A DNA stretch of 64,000 nucleotides from Zygosaccharomyces rouxii (lineage: Eukaryota > Ascomycota > Saccharomycetes > Saccharomycetales > Saccharomycetaceae). A program made the translations under genes and the position numbers. Every line of letters starts with the position of its first letter. Position 1 is the first letter of the stretch. Of this stretch, positions 14,151-22,927 are shown piece by piece. Location: contig NC_012993.1 of the NCBI RefSeq assembly GCF_000026365.1, forward strand, positions 1,054,001 to 1,118,000, written 5' to 3'. Below the pieces are notes generated by a model. That model saw only the letters and a program-made list of their open reading frames with translations. It searched no databases and was not told where the DNA came from.

Positions 14151-15290
14151 ATGTCTGCAACAATTCAAGATACTTCTGATCTAAGGCGGAGACAAGCTCA
14201 ATTCACCGAGGAATTGCACGGTGATGATATTGGTTCAAAGAGCGGATTTTCCGCGTTCATTTCGAAGAACAAATCTGCTCAAAAGGAAGCTGTTGCCAAA
14301 TATTTAAGACATTGGGATGGTAAAACTGATAAAGAAGCTGAAGAAAAACGTTTGCAGGATTATAACGAAGGTACTCACTCCTACTACAATGTCGTTACCG
14401 ATTTTTACGAATACGGTTGGGGTACTTCATTCCATTTCAGTCGTTTTTATAAAGGTGAAAATTTTTACGCTAGTGTAGCACGCCATGAACACTATCTAGC
14501 TTATAAGGCCGGTATTCAGGAAGGTGACTTAGTCCTCGATGTTGGTTGTGGTGTTGGTGGACCAGCAAGTGAAATTGCACGTTTCACAGGTTGTAACGTT
14601 GTTGGTCTAAACAATAATGATTATCAAGTCGCAAAGGCCAATTGGAATGCCAAGAAGTTTCACTTACAAGACCAATTGGAATTTGTTAAGGGTGACTTTA
14701 TGAAAATGGATTTCGATGATAACACTTTCGATAAAGTTTATGCCATCGAGGCCACATGTCACGCGCCCAAATTAGAAGGTGTTTACGGTGAGATTTACAG
14801 GGTATTGAAACCAGGTGGTACCTTTGCAGTTTACGAATGGGTTATGAGTGATAAGTACGACGAGAGTAATCCTGAACATCGTAAAATTGCTTATGAGATT
14901 GAAGTCGGTGATGGTATCCCCAAGATGTTTCCTGCTCAAGTTGCAAGAGAAGCATTGAAAAACGTGGGGTTCGAAGTTAAAGTAGCTAAAGATCTAGCCG
15001 ACAATCAAGACGAGGTTCCATGGTATTATCCTCTAACGGGGGAATGGAAGTTTGTGCAAACCTTCGGAGATCTAGCCACGTTTTTCCGTACTTCTTACTT
15101 AGGTCGTAAGTTTACCACGTTTATGGTATACCTTATGGAATTATTGGGCATTGCACCACAAGGCTCAACTAAAGTGACATTGGCACTAGAAGAGGCTGCA
15201 GTAGGCCTCGTGGCAGGGGGTCGTGCCAAATTGTTCACCCCAATGATGCTCTTTGTTGCAAGGAAGCCAGACGACAATAAGCACGTTTGA
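14151..15290 (+). CDS. ERG6: Sterol 24-C-methyltransferase Erg6
   Basis: A 379-residue SAM-dependent methyltransferase (S. cerevisiae Erg6 has 383). It transfers a methyl group to C-24 of zymosterol to make fecosterol in ergosterol synthesis, at the ER and lipid droplets. The SAM-binding motif [10 protein letters not shown] starts near residue 128. The sterol-binding signature [14 protein letters not shown] lies near residues 86-99, and further conserved segments are EATCHAPKL and YEWVMSDKY. The C-terminal sterol methyltransferase domain follows (about 220-370). It has no membrane segments, as usual. The promoter holds sterol-response-like sites, and an A24 run lies 25 bp after the stop. In S. 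cerevisiae ERG6 also neighbours YAP1 and MRPL39. Confidence 0.97.
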
Positions 15291-15721: not shown

Positions 15722-17425
15722 ATGTCTTTTTACGCGGCTGTTGACAATAGGTATCTAACCAAGCCAGTACTCAGAGATGTTCCATACAAGGCTGACGATC
15801 TCAGATATAAGGTGATAGGCCAGTCAAGAAAAGAAATTAGATGGTTTGATAGGAAGAACAGAGCAACCGCTTTACCTAACAGTGAGCTAAAGGAAGAAGA
15901 ACTAGTTGATGGTCAACCTCGTAAGAAGAAGCGTAACTTTCGTAAATACGGTGCCATTCTCACGACAGGTGCGGGTCTCTTCAGTGATGGATATATCAAT
16001 ACATCAATTTCAACTGTATCAGCATGTTTGAAAAGGGTTTACAAGGATGAATATGCGAATTCAAGTGCGATGCAAAACGTTTCGTCAATTGCATTTGCGG
16101 GAACCGTTATTGGACAATTGTTCTTTGGTTGGTTCGCAGATTATTACAATCGTAAAGTTTCTATGGTTATTGGTACTTCTATTATCATTGTTTTTTCCAT
16201 TCTATGTGCAGGAGCGTGGGGAGTTGGTACTACAGCCACACATGCGGGTGGTTTATTCACTGCTATTACCGCTTATAGATTTTTCATTGGTCTTGGAATT
16301 GGTAGCGAATATAGTAGTGGATCACCAGCAGCTGCTGAAGCTGCAAATATGTTACCAGCTGGTAAAAGAAATCGTTATTTCATTTGGTTTACTAATTTAA
16401 TGCTTGATTTTGGTGGTATAGTGGCTTCATTTGCGGCATTGGTTGTTCTATGGATTTGTGGTGCTAATAATTTGAATACTGTTTGGAGAGTTACTTTAGG
16501 TATTGGTGCGATTCCTCCAATGTCGTTATTTGTCCTGCGTATTTTCTATAGGGAAAGTGATGAATTCCAAAAGCATAAATTTAATAGATGTATGCCATAC
16601 TGGAGAATTATTAAATTCTACTGGTTTAGAGTTTTAACTACTTCCGTTATTTGGTTTCTTTATGATTTTTCATCCTATGCTTTTAACACCTATTCGACAA
16701 TTATAATTCAACTTGTTATGGGCGATGATACATCCATGTACAAGTCCTTCGGTTGGAACGTCGTTTTTACACTTTTTAACGTCCCTGGGTCAATATTAGG
16801 ATCAATATGTGCAGATTGGTGGGGGCCTCGTATCACATTGACTATAGGTCTTGTTGTACAGGCTATAATCGGTTTTGCACTGGCAGGCGCTTTAGAGACT
16901 TTAAAGAAACATGTAGCTGGATTTGTTGTCATCTATGGTATTTTCACTACGTTTGGTGAGTTTTCCGCAGGTGATAATATAGGTTTACTGTGTGCTACTA
17001 CTGTTGCAGCTCCAGTTAGAGGTCATCTGTATGGTTTCTCAGCGGCAATGGGTAAGATTGGTGCTTTCGTGGGTACATATGTTTTCCCTGACATTATTAA
17101 AAACGCAGGTGGCTCAGGAACTACTAGTGGCCTTCAGGCACCTTACTGGTGTGCATCGTCCCTATGTGTCTTTAGTGCTATCATTGGGTTTTTCTGTTTA
17201 CCGGATACTGATCAAGAGGCAGCATTAGATGAGGACAGAAAGTTCTTTGAGTACTTGAAAAGTACTGGCTACGACATTACTCAACTTGGTGATACCAGTA
17301 GTCAAGATTCTTCATATGATTCTGAATCTGTTACTACTGAAACTCAAGCCGTTAAGAGCAAAGAAGGTTTGGAATTTGCTGGTGAAACCAGTGGTGAAAT
17401 CAAAAAGGGTTCTAGTGAATGGTAA
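15722..17425 (+). CDS. GIT1-type glycerophosphodiester / phosphate permease (MFS)
   Basis: A 567-residue major facilitator protein with about 12 predicted membrane spans between residues 75 and 500. The family loop motif GWFADYYNRKVSMVIG follows span 2, and LGIGSEYSSGSPAAAEAAN sits near span 4, both typical of the phosphate:H+ symporter/Git1 subgroup. A long basic hydrophilic N-terminus and an acidic Ser/Thr-rich C-terminal tail (about 500-567) face the cytosol. S. cerevisiae Git1 (518 aa, near a chromosome end) imports glycerophosphoinositol and glycerophosphocholine; the substrate here is inferred only. Neither S. cerevisiae sister region has a transporter between ERG6 and DYN2, so this is a local gain or a retained ancestral copy. 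Confidence 0.85.
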   Translation: MSFYAAVDNRYLTKPVLRDVPYKADDLRYKVIGQSRKEIRWFDRKNRATALPNSELKEEELVDGQPRKKKRNFRKYGAILTTGAGLFSDGYINTSISTVSACLKRVYKDEYANSSAMQNVSSIAFAGTVIGQLFFGWFADYYNRKVSMVIGTSIIIVFSILCAGAWGVGTTATHAGGLFTAITAYRFFIGLGIGSEYSSGSPAAAEAANMLPAGKRNRYFIWFTNLMLDFGGIVASFAALVVLWICGANNLNTVWRVTLGIGAIPPMSLFVLRIFYRESDEFQKHKFNRCMPYWRIIKFYWFRVLTTSVIWFLYDFSSYAFNTYSTIIIQLVMGDDTSMYKSFGWNVVFTLFNVPGSILGSICADWWGPRITLTIGLVVQAIIGFALAGALETLKKHVAGFVVIYGIFTTFGEFSAGDNIGLLCATTVAAPVRGHLYGFSAAMGKIGAFVGTYVFPDIIKNAGGSGTTSGLQAPYWCASSLCVFSAIIGFFCLPDTDQEAALDEDRKFFEYLKSTGYDITQLGDTSSQDSSYDSESVTTETQAVKSKEGLEFAGETSGEIKKGSSEW

Positions 17426-17619: not shown

Positions 17620-19056
17620 ATGTCAGATAGGATCAAAGTAGTTGTGAGAGTTAAGAAACCTCAGGGGAATCTACCCATTGTGTGCAAAGTTCATGGAGAT
17701 ACCATATCATTGATCAATGATGATAAGAAGGCGTTTAGATTATCGTCACCTCAGAAGAACGCCGCCAAAGAGTTTAGATACGATCATTGTTTTGGCTCTA
17801 CAGATTCTGTGGATAGAGATCAATCAATAATATATGAGAGCTTAGTCCGTGGTTATGTTTTACACACTTTGGAAGGTTATAACAGTTGTATATTGGCATA
17901 TGGTCAAACCGGATCTGGTAAAACTTTTACCATGATGGGGGAAAAGGGTAATGAAGGTATTGTTCCCAGATTTTGTCGTGAATTGTTTGAAGTATTCCAC
18001 ATGTGTCATCAAGATGATCAAGAGTCTGATATAATCACCGATTTCCAAGTCAAATGTTCATTCTTTGAGATCTATAACGAACAAGTGATAGATTTACTAT
18101 CATCTTTGAGCCAAAGGAAATGTAAGATACGAGAAAGACATGATCACAGTACTTTTGTAGAAGGTTTGGAAGAAATTGCAGTTCATAATGTGGAGGAACT
18201 CATTTCTTGTATCCATAAAGGTAACGAGAACCGAACTGTAAGATCTACGAACATGAACCAGGAATCAAGCAGATCTCATGCTATCTTTCACATTAGTGTT
18301 AATCAAAAGGAGACTCATAAGAAAACGGGAACTGTCGTAGAATGTCATTCCACCTGCAAATTGGTTGATTTAGCAGGAAGTGAAAGATTAGGTAGTGCGG
18401 CCGCCGATGGTAAAATAAGACAAGAGGGAACGAGTATTAACAAATCATTGAGCATATTGGGTAGAGTAATTTCCCTATTGGCGGAAGGTGATAGACAGAG
18501 AAGTCAAATGATACCCTACAGGGAATCTGCACTCACTTGGATTCTGAAAGAAAATTTGGGCGGTAACAGTAATACATGCTTAGTTGCATGTGTGTCACCA
18601 GAAAACTACTACGAATCATTATCTACATTAAGGTATGCTTCTTTGACCAAGAAAGTAAAAACAAATGCAACCATTAATTCAATGTCACATATTGAACAGA
18701 TGGAAGAATTGAAGGCGAAGTTACGTGAATTGCAAAAGATGATTAATGATAAGAAACCTACAAGTGCTCATCAACATACTTTGGAAAGACGCATGGAAGA
18801 TATTCAAAGGGCTAATTTTTTCCTTGAACAAAGAATGGCCAAAGAATCTCAATTAGCTGATCAATCGTTACAAACCGCTAGATACGAACGAGATTTACTG
18901 GCTTCAATGGTTTTACAAATGATTGAATCATTCAATTGGAATCAACCTTTAAATGATCAAGCTGCTGAACTATGGGAACGCTCACAGAAATTACAAAATT
19001 CATTCCAAAAAGATAGATCGTTCTTTGATGTTACATTACAAAAGTATTTTACTTAA
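17620..19056 (+). CDS. Short N-terminal-motor kinesin, kinesin-3-like
   Basis: A 478-residue kinesin with the motor at the N-terminus (about 1-352) and a ~125-residue tail with coiled-coil character (about 355-450). The motor is complete: P-loop GQTGSGKT at 95-102, switch I NQESSRSH at 213-220, switch II DLAGSE at 250-255. The segments [20 protein letters not shown] and [17 protein letters not shown] resemble the Unc104/KIF1 (kinesin-3) class more than Kip1, Kip2, Kip3 or Cin8. FHA, PH and other kinesin-3 tail domains are absent, as in short fungal forms such as NcKin3. The usual RVRPF strand is RVKKP. S. cerevisiae has six kinesin-related proteins and no recognised kinesin-3. The stop codon overlaps that of DYN2 on the other strand. 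Class assignment is from motif reading, not a tree. Confidence 0.85.
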
Positions 19057-19463
19057 GCCGTCTTAAACACAAGGAAAGCTAATGTCCCCACATAAAAATA
19101 CATGAAATGACCCTTCTCGTGAGTCACATAACTACCAAAATTTTTTCCAACGATAACATGCCAAGTGTTTCCATATTTCACATCCAATTGCTTCTTAATG
19201 GATCCTGCAATGTCCCGCTCCATCTCGAAATTGGCTAAAGCTTCCAACGTTATATCAAACACGTTGTCCCTCAATTCATCAGCCTATCATCAGCTTTTGT
19301 TAGTAAATGAAAGTCTCTGCATTTTTTTAATTATTGCTTCACATACGATATCTGATGCCTTTAAAATGGCTACGAATATAATGAAAACGTTAGTAAAGTA
19401 GTTTCAACAAGGGTAAAATGGAAATACAAGGAATCACATACGCTTATTATTGACGCTTGCCAT
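19053..19463 (-). CDS. DYN2: Dynein light chain Dyn2 (three exons)
   Basis: An LC8-type light chain of 91 residues once two introns are removed. Exon 1 is complement 19442-19463 (22 nt), exon 2 complement 19347-19369 (23 nt) and exon 3 complement 19053-19283. The joined start reads MASVNNKPILKASDI and then ADELRDN, aligning with the 92-residue S. cerevisiae protein, which also has two introns. The C-terminal half is nearly invariant ([20 protein letters not shown] and the ending FLVFKTA). Dyn2 is a hub subunit of cytoplasmic dynein, needed for nuclear migration, and of the nuclear pore. Its neighbour SNX41 is the same as in S. cerevisiae. Its stop codon overlaps that of the kinesin gene. Confidence 0.95.
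19284..19346 (-). other. DYN2 intron 2 (63 nt)
   Basis: On the minus strand it begins GTATGT, has a TACTAAC branch point (complement 19299-19305) and ends TAG. Removing it restores the reading frame between exon 2 (ending GATATC) and exon 3 (starting GCTGAT). Confidence 0.93.
19370..19441 (-). other. DYN2 intron 1 (72 nt)
   Basis: On the minus strand it begins GTATGT, has TACTAAC at complement 19389-19395 and ends GTAG. It splits codon 8. Confidence 0.93.
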
Positions 19464-19649: not shown

Positions 19650-21554
19650 ATGGATATATTTGGAGATTCTGAAGAAGAAGATAACAATCCGTTCAGTGGA
19701 ACGAACCACCTTTATGCCTCTGGTATTGCTGCTGTAGAGAATGGTGAAGACGATTTCATTCCCAAGGGGTTCATGGAAGATGAACCACTTGTGAACAGCA
19801 ATTCTGCTAACCAAGATGATGACCAAGATAATGATCAAGATGATTATCAAAATGATGAAGAAGGAGAAGAACAGGGCTTGTTGATAGATCATGAAGAACA
19901 AGAGCAACAACGAGGGGAACAAGAGGAAGAAGAGGAGGAAAGATCGGGAACTACTTTGTCAGATACGACTACACAATTCGAACCATACGTTTCATTGACA
20001 ATGTCTATGGCTAATAATGTGGACCACAGTACATCCTTCGAGGCAGATAAGGATATTCAAGTGATTGATGCCGGCGAGTACAAGGACCCATGGGGTAAAC
20101 GTGCCATTGGTTATTCTCTGAGGTTTCAAGGTCAAGATGTCATCAGGAGATATTCCGAATTCGATACACTTAGACAGGCACTCGTAAGGTTATTGCCCAC
20201 GGTGGTGGTTCCACCGATTCCTTTCAAGCATCCATTGATCAAATACTTTTTGAGTCCACTTTCGGTGGAAAACGATTCTAAAACCATTGAAAAGAGAAAA
20301 CGTATGTTCTCATCATTTCTTAACAACTGCATTAAAGTTCCTGAAATTAGAGATCATATTGTGTTCAAGAAGTTCTTGGATCCAGAGTATGCTTGGAAAA
20401 ACGTACTAAGTTCTCCACCAATTGTAATTTTACCCGTGAATAACTTGCTGGCACCGCCATTAAATCCTACAAAACCGAGTCCCTTGCACCTGTTGCTTCC
20501 AGGCCCTATATCCATATCTAGGTTAGATTCGTCTGCTCATAGCGGTACCTCTTTGGAAGTGGAAACGCAATTTGCCCATTTGGAGGCACTTTTCAAGAAA
20601 AGTAAGGAAGTGTACCAACCATTACACAGGATAATTAAACAGCACAGATCGCATTTCCACGATCTGTCATCATTTTTCGCTGAATTAGGAGCTTACTACA
20701 ATGCATTTAGTTTAGAGGATAACGTAATTGCCAATGCGCGATCAATGCTACAGATCAAGTCGTTATCAAATGGGATTGAAAAAATTGGACACGGGTTTGA
20801 CGTAAACTACGTTAGTTCAGAGATCCTAGTGGATAACTTACTTTCACTTTTTGAAGAACCTCTTGGCGAAATCCTACAGTTTCTTGACGATGCAGCTAGG
20901 ATACTACAGTTTAGAAAATTGAAGCAGATGCAATATCAAATTATAGAACATACTATATCGAAGAGAGAGAATAGAGCCAGAAGTTTACAAGAATCCCAGA
21001 CTCAATTGAAAAGATTGGAAAACGTTTTGCAGAAAAATGCGCAGGAATCCCCAACCATCGCTGAAGCGGTTAAACATATAGAGAATAGCATGCATGAAGG
21101 GGTAACACTACCGCAGCCACAAACGTCTGAGGAACAGTCAAACAAACCATTATTGGAAGGATATAGTCAGAATTACCATCAAAATAATCAGAAAAATGCA
21201 TCTTCAGCTTCATCAGTTCTCACAGGAGTACCTCATGCCAAACTGAGAAGAACGAGAAGAGCACGATCAAAGGAGTTAGAACCGCATCAACTCACAGAAA
21301 CCGAGAGGCAAGATGAGATTCAAAAGCTGCATAAGGAAATAGACAAACTAAATGAGTGCTTCAAACTGGTCTCTAGGGACATTGACGAAGTGAATCGGTC
21401 TTCGTTAGAGAGTTTACAACGTTTGGCACGCTACATCAACGACAAATGGGAATTTATGCTAAAAAATTTCGCCAAATCAATGGTAAACTGGCTTTCAGAG
21501 TGCCTTAAAGCCTGGAAAAATGCCAGGTCCGTTGTAGACGCCATTGAATCCTGA
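19650..21554 (+). CDS. SNX41: Sorting nexin Snx41
   Basis: A 634-residue sorting nexin (S. cerevisiae 625). The N-terminus is acidic with the conserved EEDNNPFSGTNHLYASG; then comes an acidic Glu/Asp/Gln tract. The PX domain (about 110-235) includes RRYSEFDTLRQAL and VVPPIPFKHP, the phosphatidylinositol-3-phosphate pocket region. A BAR-like helical C-terminus (about 300-634) follows. With Snx4/Atg24 it retrieves Snc1 from endosomes and takes part in selective autophagy. The start is the ATG at 19650; an upstream in-frame TTG is not a credible start. Gene order DYN2-SNX41-RPN9 is as in S. cerevisiae. Confidence 0.93.
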   Translation: MDIFGDSEEEDNNPFSGTNHLYASGIAAVENGEDDFIPKGFMEDEPLVNSNSANQDDDQDNDQDDYQNDEEGEEQGLLIDHEEQEQQRGEQEEEEEERSGTTLSDTTTQFEPYVSLTMSMANNVDHSTSFEADKDIQVIDAGEYKDPWGKRAIGYSLRFQGQDVIRRYSEFDTLRQALVRLLPTVVVPPIPFKHPLIKYFLSPLSVENDSKTIEKRKRMFSSFLNNCIKVPEIRDHIVFKKFLDPEYAWKNVLSSPPIVILPVNNLLAPPLNPTKPSPLHLLLPGPISISRLDSSAHSGTSLEVETQFAHLEALFKKSKEVYQPLHRIIKQHRSHFHDLSSFFAELGAYYNAFSLEDNVIANARSMLQIKSLSNGIEKIGHGFDVNYVSSEILVDNLLSLFEEPLGEILQFLDDAARILQFRKLKQMQYQIIEHTISKRENRARSLQESQTQLKRLENVLQKNAQESPTIAEAVKHIENSMHEGVTLPQPQTSEEQSNKPLLEGYSQNYHQNNQKNASSASSVLTGVPHAKLRRTRRARSKELEPHQLTETERQDEIQKLHKEIDKLNECFKLVSRDIDEVNRSSLESLQRLARYINDKWEFMLKNFAKSMVNWLSECLKAWKNARSVVDAIES

Positions 21555-21736: not shown

Positions 21737-22927
21737 ATGCCATCGAATGCTGAAGTTACTAGCACACTGAATAAATTGAGAGAAGAGGCAAACCCAGATT
21801 TGGCTCCATTGTTTTATGAATTCGAACTGTTGTACCAACAAAAGTTATGGCACCAATTGACAGAACGTCTAAAGGTTTTCTTTGAAGATCCAAGGTCTGA
21901 AGAGTTAAGATTGACTACCTACTTGAAGTTCGTCACTACATTCTACGATAGAATCAATCAGCTAAATGTGGTGGAATTCCTTTTACAATCTTTGAGAAAT
22001 TACCACGATCATGACCAATCACTCAAATATTTGACGGAATTGGAACAATCTTTCAAAACCATAGATGAGAAAAAGCAGAGAAATGATGGTCTTAAGACCC
22101 ATGAAGACGGAAATCTCTTGATAGAAATTGAAACTGCCAGACTACATCTACATAAGGGCAATCTCGTGAAAAGTAGAGATTTGTTGGATGATTTGGGAAA
22201 GACTTTGGACAGAAGAGATTCTATTCCTCTGAAAGTGACCAACGCATACTATTCCACCAATGCGGAATACTACAGATTAAAGAATGATTTCAATAATTTC
22301 TATTACACAAGTCTATTGTACTTGTCCACTGTGGATCACCAAGAATTCCAACAAGAGGCTAATTTGGAGGAGAACAGACAGTTGGCTAACAATTTGAGCA
22401 TCGCAGCTTTGTTAGGAGATAAAATTTACAACTTCGGTGAGTTGTTAAACCACCCTATAATGGATACTATTTTAAAGGATCCACAGTACAAATGGATCTT
22501 TGATTTGTTGAATGCACTTACTCTAGGTGATTTCGACAAATTTGATAACTTAATCGGTGTGCAAATTCCTAAAGTCCCAATCCTTGCAGAACACGAATCT
22601 TTTCTAAGGCAAAAGATTTGCCTAATGACTCTAGTGGAAAGCGTATTTGCCAAGAACATCAGAACCTTATCGTTTGACGATATTTCACAAGCATCTCATT
22701 TACCCAAGGATAATGTGGAACATCTTGTAATGAGAGCAATTAGTCTGGGTCTTTTGAAAGGATCGATCGATCAAGTTAACGAATTGGTCAACATCACTTG
22801 GGTACAACCAAGGATTATCAACAGCGCTCAAATTTCAAGAATGAGAGATATCATAGTGGATTGGGATTCAGAAGTGACAAAACTAGGTGAAAAAATTGCA
22901 ACTCATGGGAGATCTATATGGGTCTAA
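21737..22927 (+). CDS. RPN9: 26S proteasome lid subunit Rpn9
   Basis: A 396-residue non-ATPase regulatory subunit of the proteasome lid (S. cerevisiae 393). It is almost entirely helical: TPR-like repeats over the first two thirds and a PCI domain at the C-terminal end (about 195-360), ending in the lid helix region. No active site is expected. A perfect Rpn4 element precedes it. Its stop codon is only 2 bp from that of BNA7 on the other strand, so the transcripts must overlap at their 3' ends. Confidence 0.95.
   Translation: MPSNAEVTSTLNKLREEANPDLAPLFYEFELLYQQKLWHQLTERLKVFFEDPRSEELRLTTYLKFVTTFYDRINQLNVVEFLLQSLRNYHDHDQSLKYLTELEQSFKTIDEKKQRNDGLKTHEDGNLLIEIETARLHLHKGNLVKSRDLLDDLGKTLDRRDSIPLKVTNAYYSTNAEYYRLKNDFNNFYYTSLLYLSTVDHQEFQQEANLEENRQLANNLSIAALLGDKIYNFGELLNHPIMDTILKDPQYKWIFDLLNALTLGDFDKFDNLIGVQIPKVPILAEHESFLRQKICLMTLVESVFAKNIRTLSFDDISQASHLPKDNVEHLVMRAISLGLLKGSIDQVNELVNITWVQPRIINSAQISRMRDIIVDWDSEVTKLGEKIATHGRSIWV

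What the first reader, a model, noticed from the sequence alone, without database searches (positions are those of the whole stretch)
17620..19056. A short kinesin-3-like motor where S. cerevisiae has none
The gene encodes a complete kinesin motor whose C-terminal motor segments ([32 protein letters not shown]) read like the Unc104/KIF1 class. S. cerevisiae has only Cin8, Kip1, Kip2, Kip3, Kar3 and Smy1, and no kinesin-3. With 478 residues it lacks FHA, PH and other cargo domains, like short fungal kinesin-3 forms. It sits tail to tail with a dynein light chain gene. If the class holds, this is either a kinesin-3 remnant kept in a yeast lineage long thought to have lost it, or a divergent motor specific to this clade.
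Basis: partly seen in the sequence, partly recalled or inferred. Interest (0 to 1): 0.8.

Follow-up and report, generated by a model that had tools for sequence, protein, structure and literature searches.

The report
Short kinesin-3 motor in a yeast
This gene makes a small microtubule motor of the kinesin-3 class, a class that baker's yeast lacks, as an extra seventh kinesin that some close yeast relatives also carry and whose job is unknown.

Summary
ORF 17620-19056 (+) encodes 478 residues with an intact kinesin motor. The source genome (9,764,635 bp, 7 contigs) has seven kinesin genes: counterparts of Kip3, Kar3, Kip2, Cin8, Kip1 and Smy1, plus this one. So it is not a misread version of one of the six known from S. 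cerevisiae.

The motor falls in the kinesin-3 clade (95/98 support). Its nearest named relatives are short kinesins of Lachancea, Eremothecium sinecaudum and Vanderwaltozyma polyspora, then short kinesin-3s of other yeasts and moulds, the NcKin3/UncB type.

Limits: the data do not reject joining it with full-length kinesin-3s (p 0.124), or with the very long Kar3 or Smy1 branches (p 0.357, 0.11). No ascomycete full-length kinesin-3 was in the tree. Function is inferred: probably a dimeric, weakly processive plus-end motor working in teams. The link to neighbouring DYN2 is probably incidental: V. polyspora is reported to lack dynein.

New member of a known kind.

The parts
17620..19056 (+). Short kinesin-3 gene, 478 aa, single exon
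   Evidence: ORF; Pfam Kinesin; tree
17719..18657 (+). Kinesin motor domain (residues 34-346)
   Evidence: Pfam PF00225, E 7.1e-102; same stretch found in the whole-genome search
17902..17925 (+). P-loop GQTGSGKT (residues 95-102)
18256..18279 (+). Switch I NQESSRSH (residues 213-220)
18367..18384 (+). Switch II DLAGSE (residues 250-255)
18481..18513 (+). Loop 12 (K-loop position), residues 288-298; no net positive charge here
   Evidence: scored there over residues 285-298: K+R-D-E = 0, against +4 in NcKin3 and +3 in KIF1A; residue limits of the loop assigned by eye
18532..18570 (+). Kinesin-3-like motif [13 protein letters not shown] (residues 305-317)
   Evidence: LTW in 19 of 20 aligned yeast relatives; E. 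sinecaudum has LTR
18658..19053 (+). Neck and tail, residues 347-478: predicted helices 359-377, 384-437, 446-477; no Pfam domain
   Evidence: AlphaFold2 model, pLDDT about 58-82 here
19053..19463 (-). DYN2, dynein light chain: exons 19463-19442, 19369-19347, 19283-19053
   Evidence: splice signals and joined reading; Pfam Dynein_light 6.3e-33; only such match in the genome
19053..19056 (.). TTAA shared by the two convergent stop codons
   Evidence: sequence and DYN2 reading
14151..15290 (+). ERG6-like sterol methyltransferase (context)
   Evidence: Pfam Sterol_MT_C 4.8e-26; gene name recalled
15722..17425 (+). MFS transporter directly upstream (context)
   Evidence: Pfam Sugar_tr 4e-33
19650..21554 (+). 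PX-domain protein, SNX41-like (context)
   Evidence: Pfam PX 8.3e-15; gene name recalled
21737..22927 (+). RPN9 (context)
   Evidence: Pfam PSD13_N, PCI, Rpn9_C

Best explanation
The gene encodes an active, short kinesin-3 of the NcKin3/UncB kind: an N-terminal motor, a short helical neck and tail, and no FHA, PH or other cargo domain. It was inherited vertically within budding yeasts, kept in this lineage and some relatives, and is missing from S. cerevisiae. Shown: intact motor motifs, kinesin-3 placement, seventh kinesin beside counterparts of the six known ones, relatives across budding yeasts. Inferred: plus-end direction; dimerisation through the neck helices; low processivity with work in teams, as measured by others for NcKin3; cargo or adaptor binding through the last 130 residues. 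My favoured use, about 0.4 likely, is microtubule-based positioning of an organelle such as mitochondria or the nucleus.
For: Tree: kinesin-3 clade of 43 rows 95/98, 90/96 without Smy1; 13 Saccharomycetaceae rows 98/99; window group sister to V. polyspora plus P0018, 100/99. Order Wickerhamomyces, Kuraishia, Saccharomycetaceae fits vertical descent. PDB sequence scores: KIF13B 272, KIF1A 258, NcKin3 252, KIF14 238 bits against OSM-3 211, KIF4 209, kinesin-1 200. This gene is the best match among the genome's seven kinesins for 10 of 10 kinesin-3 queries. Motor motifs intact in 20 of 20 aligned relatives. Pfam finds motor domains alone in the window protein. Tail 81% identical to P0001, so the tail is under constraint. 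NcKin3: short, dimeric, non-processive, plus-end directed (PMC2644789 and PMC3282709, passages); [quoted passage not shown]
Against: The clade of short fungal forms is not firm (92/93; 84/93), and grouping 16 yeast rows with full-length or animal kinesin-3s is not rejected (p 0.124). Kar3 and Smy1 groupings are not rejected. Fold search does not separate classes well: KIF13B is first, but KIF15 (rank 12) and kinesin-1 (rank 17) outrank NcKin3 (rank 19). The charged K-loop of kinesin-3 is neutral here. No data on direction, dimer state, cargo or expression. In A. nidulans the uncB deletion forms a normal colony (PMC3237463, passage), so a strong role is not expected.
Confidence: 0.8

Rival explanations
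1. It is a full-length Unc104/UncA-type kinesin-3 that lost its FHA and PH parts independently in yeasts, not an orthologue of the short UncB/NcKin3 form.
For: AU test does not reject 16 yeast rows joined with 12 full-length or animal kinesin-3 rows (p 0.124, lnL difference 4.99). No ascomycete full-length kinesin-3 was in the tree.
Against: Free tree groups it with short fungal forms (92/93). In a search limited to proteins of about 825-2625 aa, no row among the best 120 listed is named as an ascomycete and the scores run 285 to 274 bits, while short Pezizomycotina forms reach 295.
Confidence: 0.15
2. A mitotic or nuclear motor (spindle or nuclear positioning), partly backing up dynein and the other kinesins, not an organelle transporter.
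For: Budding yeasts move most organelles on actin (recalled; PMC3237463 says vesicle transport in S. cerevisiae depends solely on actin, passage), so microtubule work there is mostly nuclear. V. polyspora keeps this kinesin although a survey reports that it has no cytoplasmic dynein (PMC3583065, passage).
Against: No localisation data. This genome still has a dynein heavy chain-like frame of 4046 aa, so no dependence either way is shown.
Confidence: 0.35
3. A duplicate of one of the six S. cerevisiae-type kinesins.
For: AU tests do not reject grouping with Kar3 (p 0.357) or Smy1 (p 0.11).
Against: Those two rows have very long branches. Separate counterparts of all six are in the genome. Kar3 has its motor at the C-terminus and the Smy1-like protein has a degenerate switch II (DLASSD), unlike this one. 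Kinesin-5, -8, -1, Kip2 and KIF4 groupings rejected.
Confidence: 0.02
4. A decaying remnant with no function.
For: Fast evolution: motor about 45-54% identical to Lachancea and Vanderwaltozyma forms; loop 12 has lost its charge; many relatives appear to have lost the gene.
Against: Open frame, all nucleotide-binding motifs kept in 20 of 20 relatives, and the tail is 79-81% identical in the three closest relatives.
Confidence: 0.04

Closest known systems
NcKin3 (Nkin3), short kinesin-3 of Neurospora crassa, PDB 2owm
   Same: Short kinesin-3: N-terminal motor and helical neck, no cargo domain; 42% identity over 329 residues; same short fungal clade
   Different: NcKin3 has a long charged loop 12 (net +4) where this one is short and neutral; NcKin3 kinetics are measured, these are not
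UncB, short kinesin-3 of Aspergillus nidulans
   [quoted passage not shown] A. fumigatus short form P0149 is in the same clade
   Different: A. nidulans also has full-length UncA and kinesin-1 KinA; the only kinesin genes found here are the seven listed, with no full-length kinesin-3
Uncharacterised kinesins of Lachancea, Eremothecium sinecaudum (HFL202Cp) and Vanderwaltozyma polyspora (Kpol_1004p25)
   Same: Apparent orthologues: best matches, same length range 465-506 aa, one clade 98/99
   Different: 37-45% identity; the Lachancea-type loop 12 keeps positive charge where it could be scored
Full-length kinesin-3 (KIF1A, KIF13, UNC-104)
   Same: Motor class, LTW motif; 40-41% identity in the motor
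   Different: Those carry FHA and further domains and are 900-2200 aa

Membership tests
Kinesin superfamily | Motor domain with P-loop, switch I and switch II | tested here: met
   Pfam 7.1e-102; motifs
Kinesin-3 class | Motor domain inside the kinesin-3 clade (classes are defined by motor phylogeny; recalled) | tested here: met
   95/98; 90/96 without Smy1; kinesin-1, -5, -8, Kip2 and KIF4 groupings rejected, Kar3 and Smy1 groupings not rejected; kinesin-2 not in the tree
Kinesin-3 class | Positively charged K-loop in loop 12 (class-associated, not treated as defining: full-length FHA-bearing P0213 also scores 0) | tested here: not met
   net charge 0 in window, P0001, P0004, P0005; +4 NcKin3, +3 KIF1A; 48 of 55 rows scored
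Full-length Unc104/KIF1 subtype | FHA and PH or other cargo domains after the motor | tested here: not met
   no such family in Pfam scan
Short fungal kinesin-3 (NcKin3/UncB type) | Motor plus short neck/stalk only | tested here: met
   478 aa, Pfam motor alone, helices after the motor
Short fungal kinesin-3 (NcKin3/UncB type) | Monophyly with NcKin3/UncB to the exclusion of full-length kinesin-3 | tested here: inconclusive
   31 rows at 92/93, 84/93; alternative p 0.124
Short fungal kinesin-3 (NcKin3/UncB type) | Coiled-coil dimer through the neck | tested here: inconclusive
   helices predicted; hydrophobic a/d positions 4-6 of 8 per 28-residue window, no control
Short fungal kinesin-3 (NcKin3/UncB type) | Non-processive plus-end motility with one inactive head | not testable with these tools
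   needs purified protein
Cin8/Kip1, Kip2, Kip3, Kar3, Smy1 | Being the genome's representative of that class | tested here: not met
   separate counterparts of all six in the same genome

The most novel reading that the evidence does not exclude
In this branch of yeasts the short kinesin-3 has changed job: with no charged K-loop, no cargo domain and a fast-evolving motor, it has become a nuclear or spindle motor that can stand in for dynein-type work, which would explain why V. polyspora keeps it after losing dynein.
Probability: 0.15. Interest if true: 0.7.

Novelty: new member of a known kind. Interest (0 to 1): 0.45.

Why it matters
S. cerevisiae, the usual reference for yeast cytoskeleton, has no kinesin-3, and budding yeasts are taken to move organelles mainly on actin. 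A complete kinesin-3 in tractable close relatives offers a seven-kinesin yeast for comparison: one can ask what the motor does where its cargo class is thought not to use microtubules, and what changed when S. cerevisiae lost it. The species distribution, with one post-duplication yeast reported to have no dynein, makes the question testable by deletion and tagging in laboratory yeasts.

Tried and rejected
Fold search gives the right class first but does not separate classes sharply.

Considered and rejected: a duplicate of Kip1/Cin8, Kip2 or Kip3; a clade-specific novelty; chance ORF; horizontal transfer (branching follows the yeasts; base composition at third positions 0.31, neighbours 0.30-0.40). 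A functional link with DYN2 is thought unlikely, not excluded. C. albicans KIP4 is described as a hyphal-specific kinesin-like gene (PMC4305328, passage); its class was not tested.

Not done: dN/dS, gene order in other yeasts, kinesin-2 or ascomycete UncA/Nkin2 in the tree. Two AU tests did not finish; they were finished (kinesin-1; Kip2).

Full report
What is there. The ORF at 17620-19056 (+) is a clean 478-residue reading frame. Pfam finds the kinesin motor at E 7.1e-102 over residues 34-346 and a microtubule-binding model at 3.5e-21, and nothing else at E 0.001. P-loop, switch I and switch II are canonical, here and in all 20 of 20 aligned yeast relatives.

It is an extra kinesin. The genome holding the window has 9,764,635 bases in 7 contigs. 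This fits what I recall of Zygosaccharomyces rouxii CBS 732; no call names the organism. The kinesin family gave nine matches in seven genes (two genes matched in two pieces). By translation and best solved relative they are: Kip3-like (Kip3 structures, 576 and 546 bits), two kinesin-5s, Kip1- and Cin8-like (Cut7 best; which is which is tentative), Kip2-like (CENP-E best at 181 bits), Smy1-like (kinesin-1 best at 124 bits), Kar3-like (C-terminal motor; not compared with solved structures), and the window gene.

Class. Against solved structures the best scores are kinesin-3s: KIF13B 272, KIF1A 258, NcKin3 252, KIF14 238 bits; the best others are OSM-3 211, KIF4 209, kinesin-1 200. For 10 of 10 kinesin-3 queries the window gene is the best of the genome's seven kinesins. 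In a maximum-likelihood tree of 55 rows (39 of the 275 proteins returned, the window, six paralogues, nine PDB fragments) the kinesin-3 clade of 43 rows has 95/98 support. Without the very long Smy1 row it has 90/96. AU tests reject joining the 13 Saccharomycetaceae rows with kinesin-5 (p 0.0037), kinesin-8 (p 0.0002), kinesin-1 (p 0.0006), Kip2 (p 0.0004) and KIF4 (p 1.9e-5). They do not reject Kar3 (p 0.357) or Smy1 (p 0.11), both very long branches.

Relatives and descent. The closest proteins are unnamed environmental ones at 74-86% identity, and a 323-residue fragment at 100%. Named relatives are six Lachancea species, E. sinecaudum and V. polyspora, followed by short forms of Wickerhamomyces, Kuraishia, Wickerhamiella, Nadsonia, Trichomonascus, Blastobotrys and Sugiyamaella and by Pezizomycotina. 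The tree puts the window group next to V. polyspora and P0018 (100/99) inside a Saccharomycetaceae clade (98/99), with Kuraishia and Wickerhamomyces outside. That fits vertical descent. No row named as Saccharomyces, Kluyveromyces, Torulaspora, Nakaseomyces, Kazachstania, Naumovozyma or Tetrapisispora is in the best 120 listed by either search. Those lists are capped and many rows are unnamed, so this is no proof of absence; the absence from S. cerevisiae itself is recalled knowledge.

Which kinesin-3. Short fungal forms make one clade with it (31 rows, 92/93; 84/93), but joining the yeast rows with full-length or animal kinesin-3s is not rejected (p 0.124). A search limited to longer proteins listed animal and other kinesin-3s at 285 to 274 bits; the one row named as a fungus that I noticed is Mycotypha, and none is named as an ascomycete. 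Short Pezizomycotina forms reach 295. So the NcKin3/UncB type is the better reading, not a settled one.

Anatomy and mechanism. After the motor come predicted helices at 359-377, 384-437 and 446-477, at modest confidence (mean pLDDT of the model 77.7). A helical neck fits a dimer. NcKin3 is dimeric, plus-end directed and non-processive, with one head inactive (PMC2644789 and PMC3282709, passages). Transfer of this to the yeast protein is inference. Loop 12 is neutral in the window and in P0001, P0004 and P0005, while NcKin3 has +4 and several other yeast forms +3 or +4. The K-loop is said to govern reattachment of KIF1A (PMC7844421, start of abstract in a listing), so weak microtubule affinity is a fair prediction. 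The tail is 79-81% identical in the three nearest relatives but 15-32% in the more distant ones P0007-P0020, as expected of an adaptor-binding part. A role in mitochondrial transport is recalled for Nkin3 (Fuchs and Westermann); no such paper was found. The uncB deletion gives a normal colony (PMC3237463, passage).

Context. DYN2 lies tail to tail with two introns and shares TTAA between the two stop codons; it is the only dynein light chain match in the genome. A dynein heavy chain-like frame of 4046 aa is also there. A survey says V. polyspora has no cytoplasmic dynein (PMC3583065, passage), yet that species has this kinesin, so the pairing is probably incidental. The neighbours, by Pfam and recalled S. 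cerevisiae names, interleave genes of chromosome XIII (ERG6, SPT5, RAD33, TAF11, OST6, NSE5) and IV (DYN2, SNX41, RPN9, GPI17, LRS4, DOT1), as expected for an unduplicated ancestral region. If so, S. cerevisiae lost both copies. Gordon et al. 2009 count 88 such lost loci (PMC2675101, passage); whether this is one could not be checked.

Novelty. Ten paper searches turned up no study of a kinesin-3 in Saccharomycetaceae; the library holds open-licence papers only. Database entries already call the relatives kinesins. It is a new, uncharacterised member of a known kind, interesting for where it is.

Noticed in passing
window 19053-19056: Kinesin and DYN2 stop codons overlap in one TTAA, so the two convergent genes have no space between them and their transcripts must overlap.
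   Followed up: partly
window 14151-63851: Genes read as an interleaved mix of orthologues from two S. cerevisiae regions (chromosomes IV and XIII; names recalled), the pattern of an unduplicated ancestral chromosome.
   Followed up: partly
G000 contig 4, 250525-251502 (L010): Dynein heavy chain-like ATPase match (E 7.9e-108) in an open frame of 4046 aa, so this yeast seems to keep dynein as well as the extra kinesin.
   Followed up: no
L005, L006: Long low-complexity inserts (Q/R/E-rich and S-rich) sit inside the motor domains of the two kinesin-5-like proteins.
   Followed up: no
P0017, P0018: V. polyspora and an unnamed relative have longer loop 12 inserts and unusual amino acid make-up, a sign of fast evolution in that branch.
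   Followed up: no
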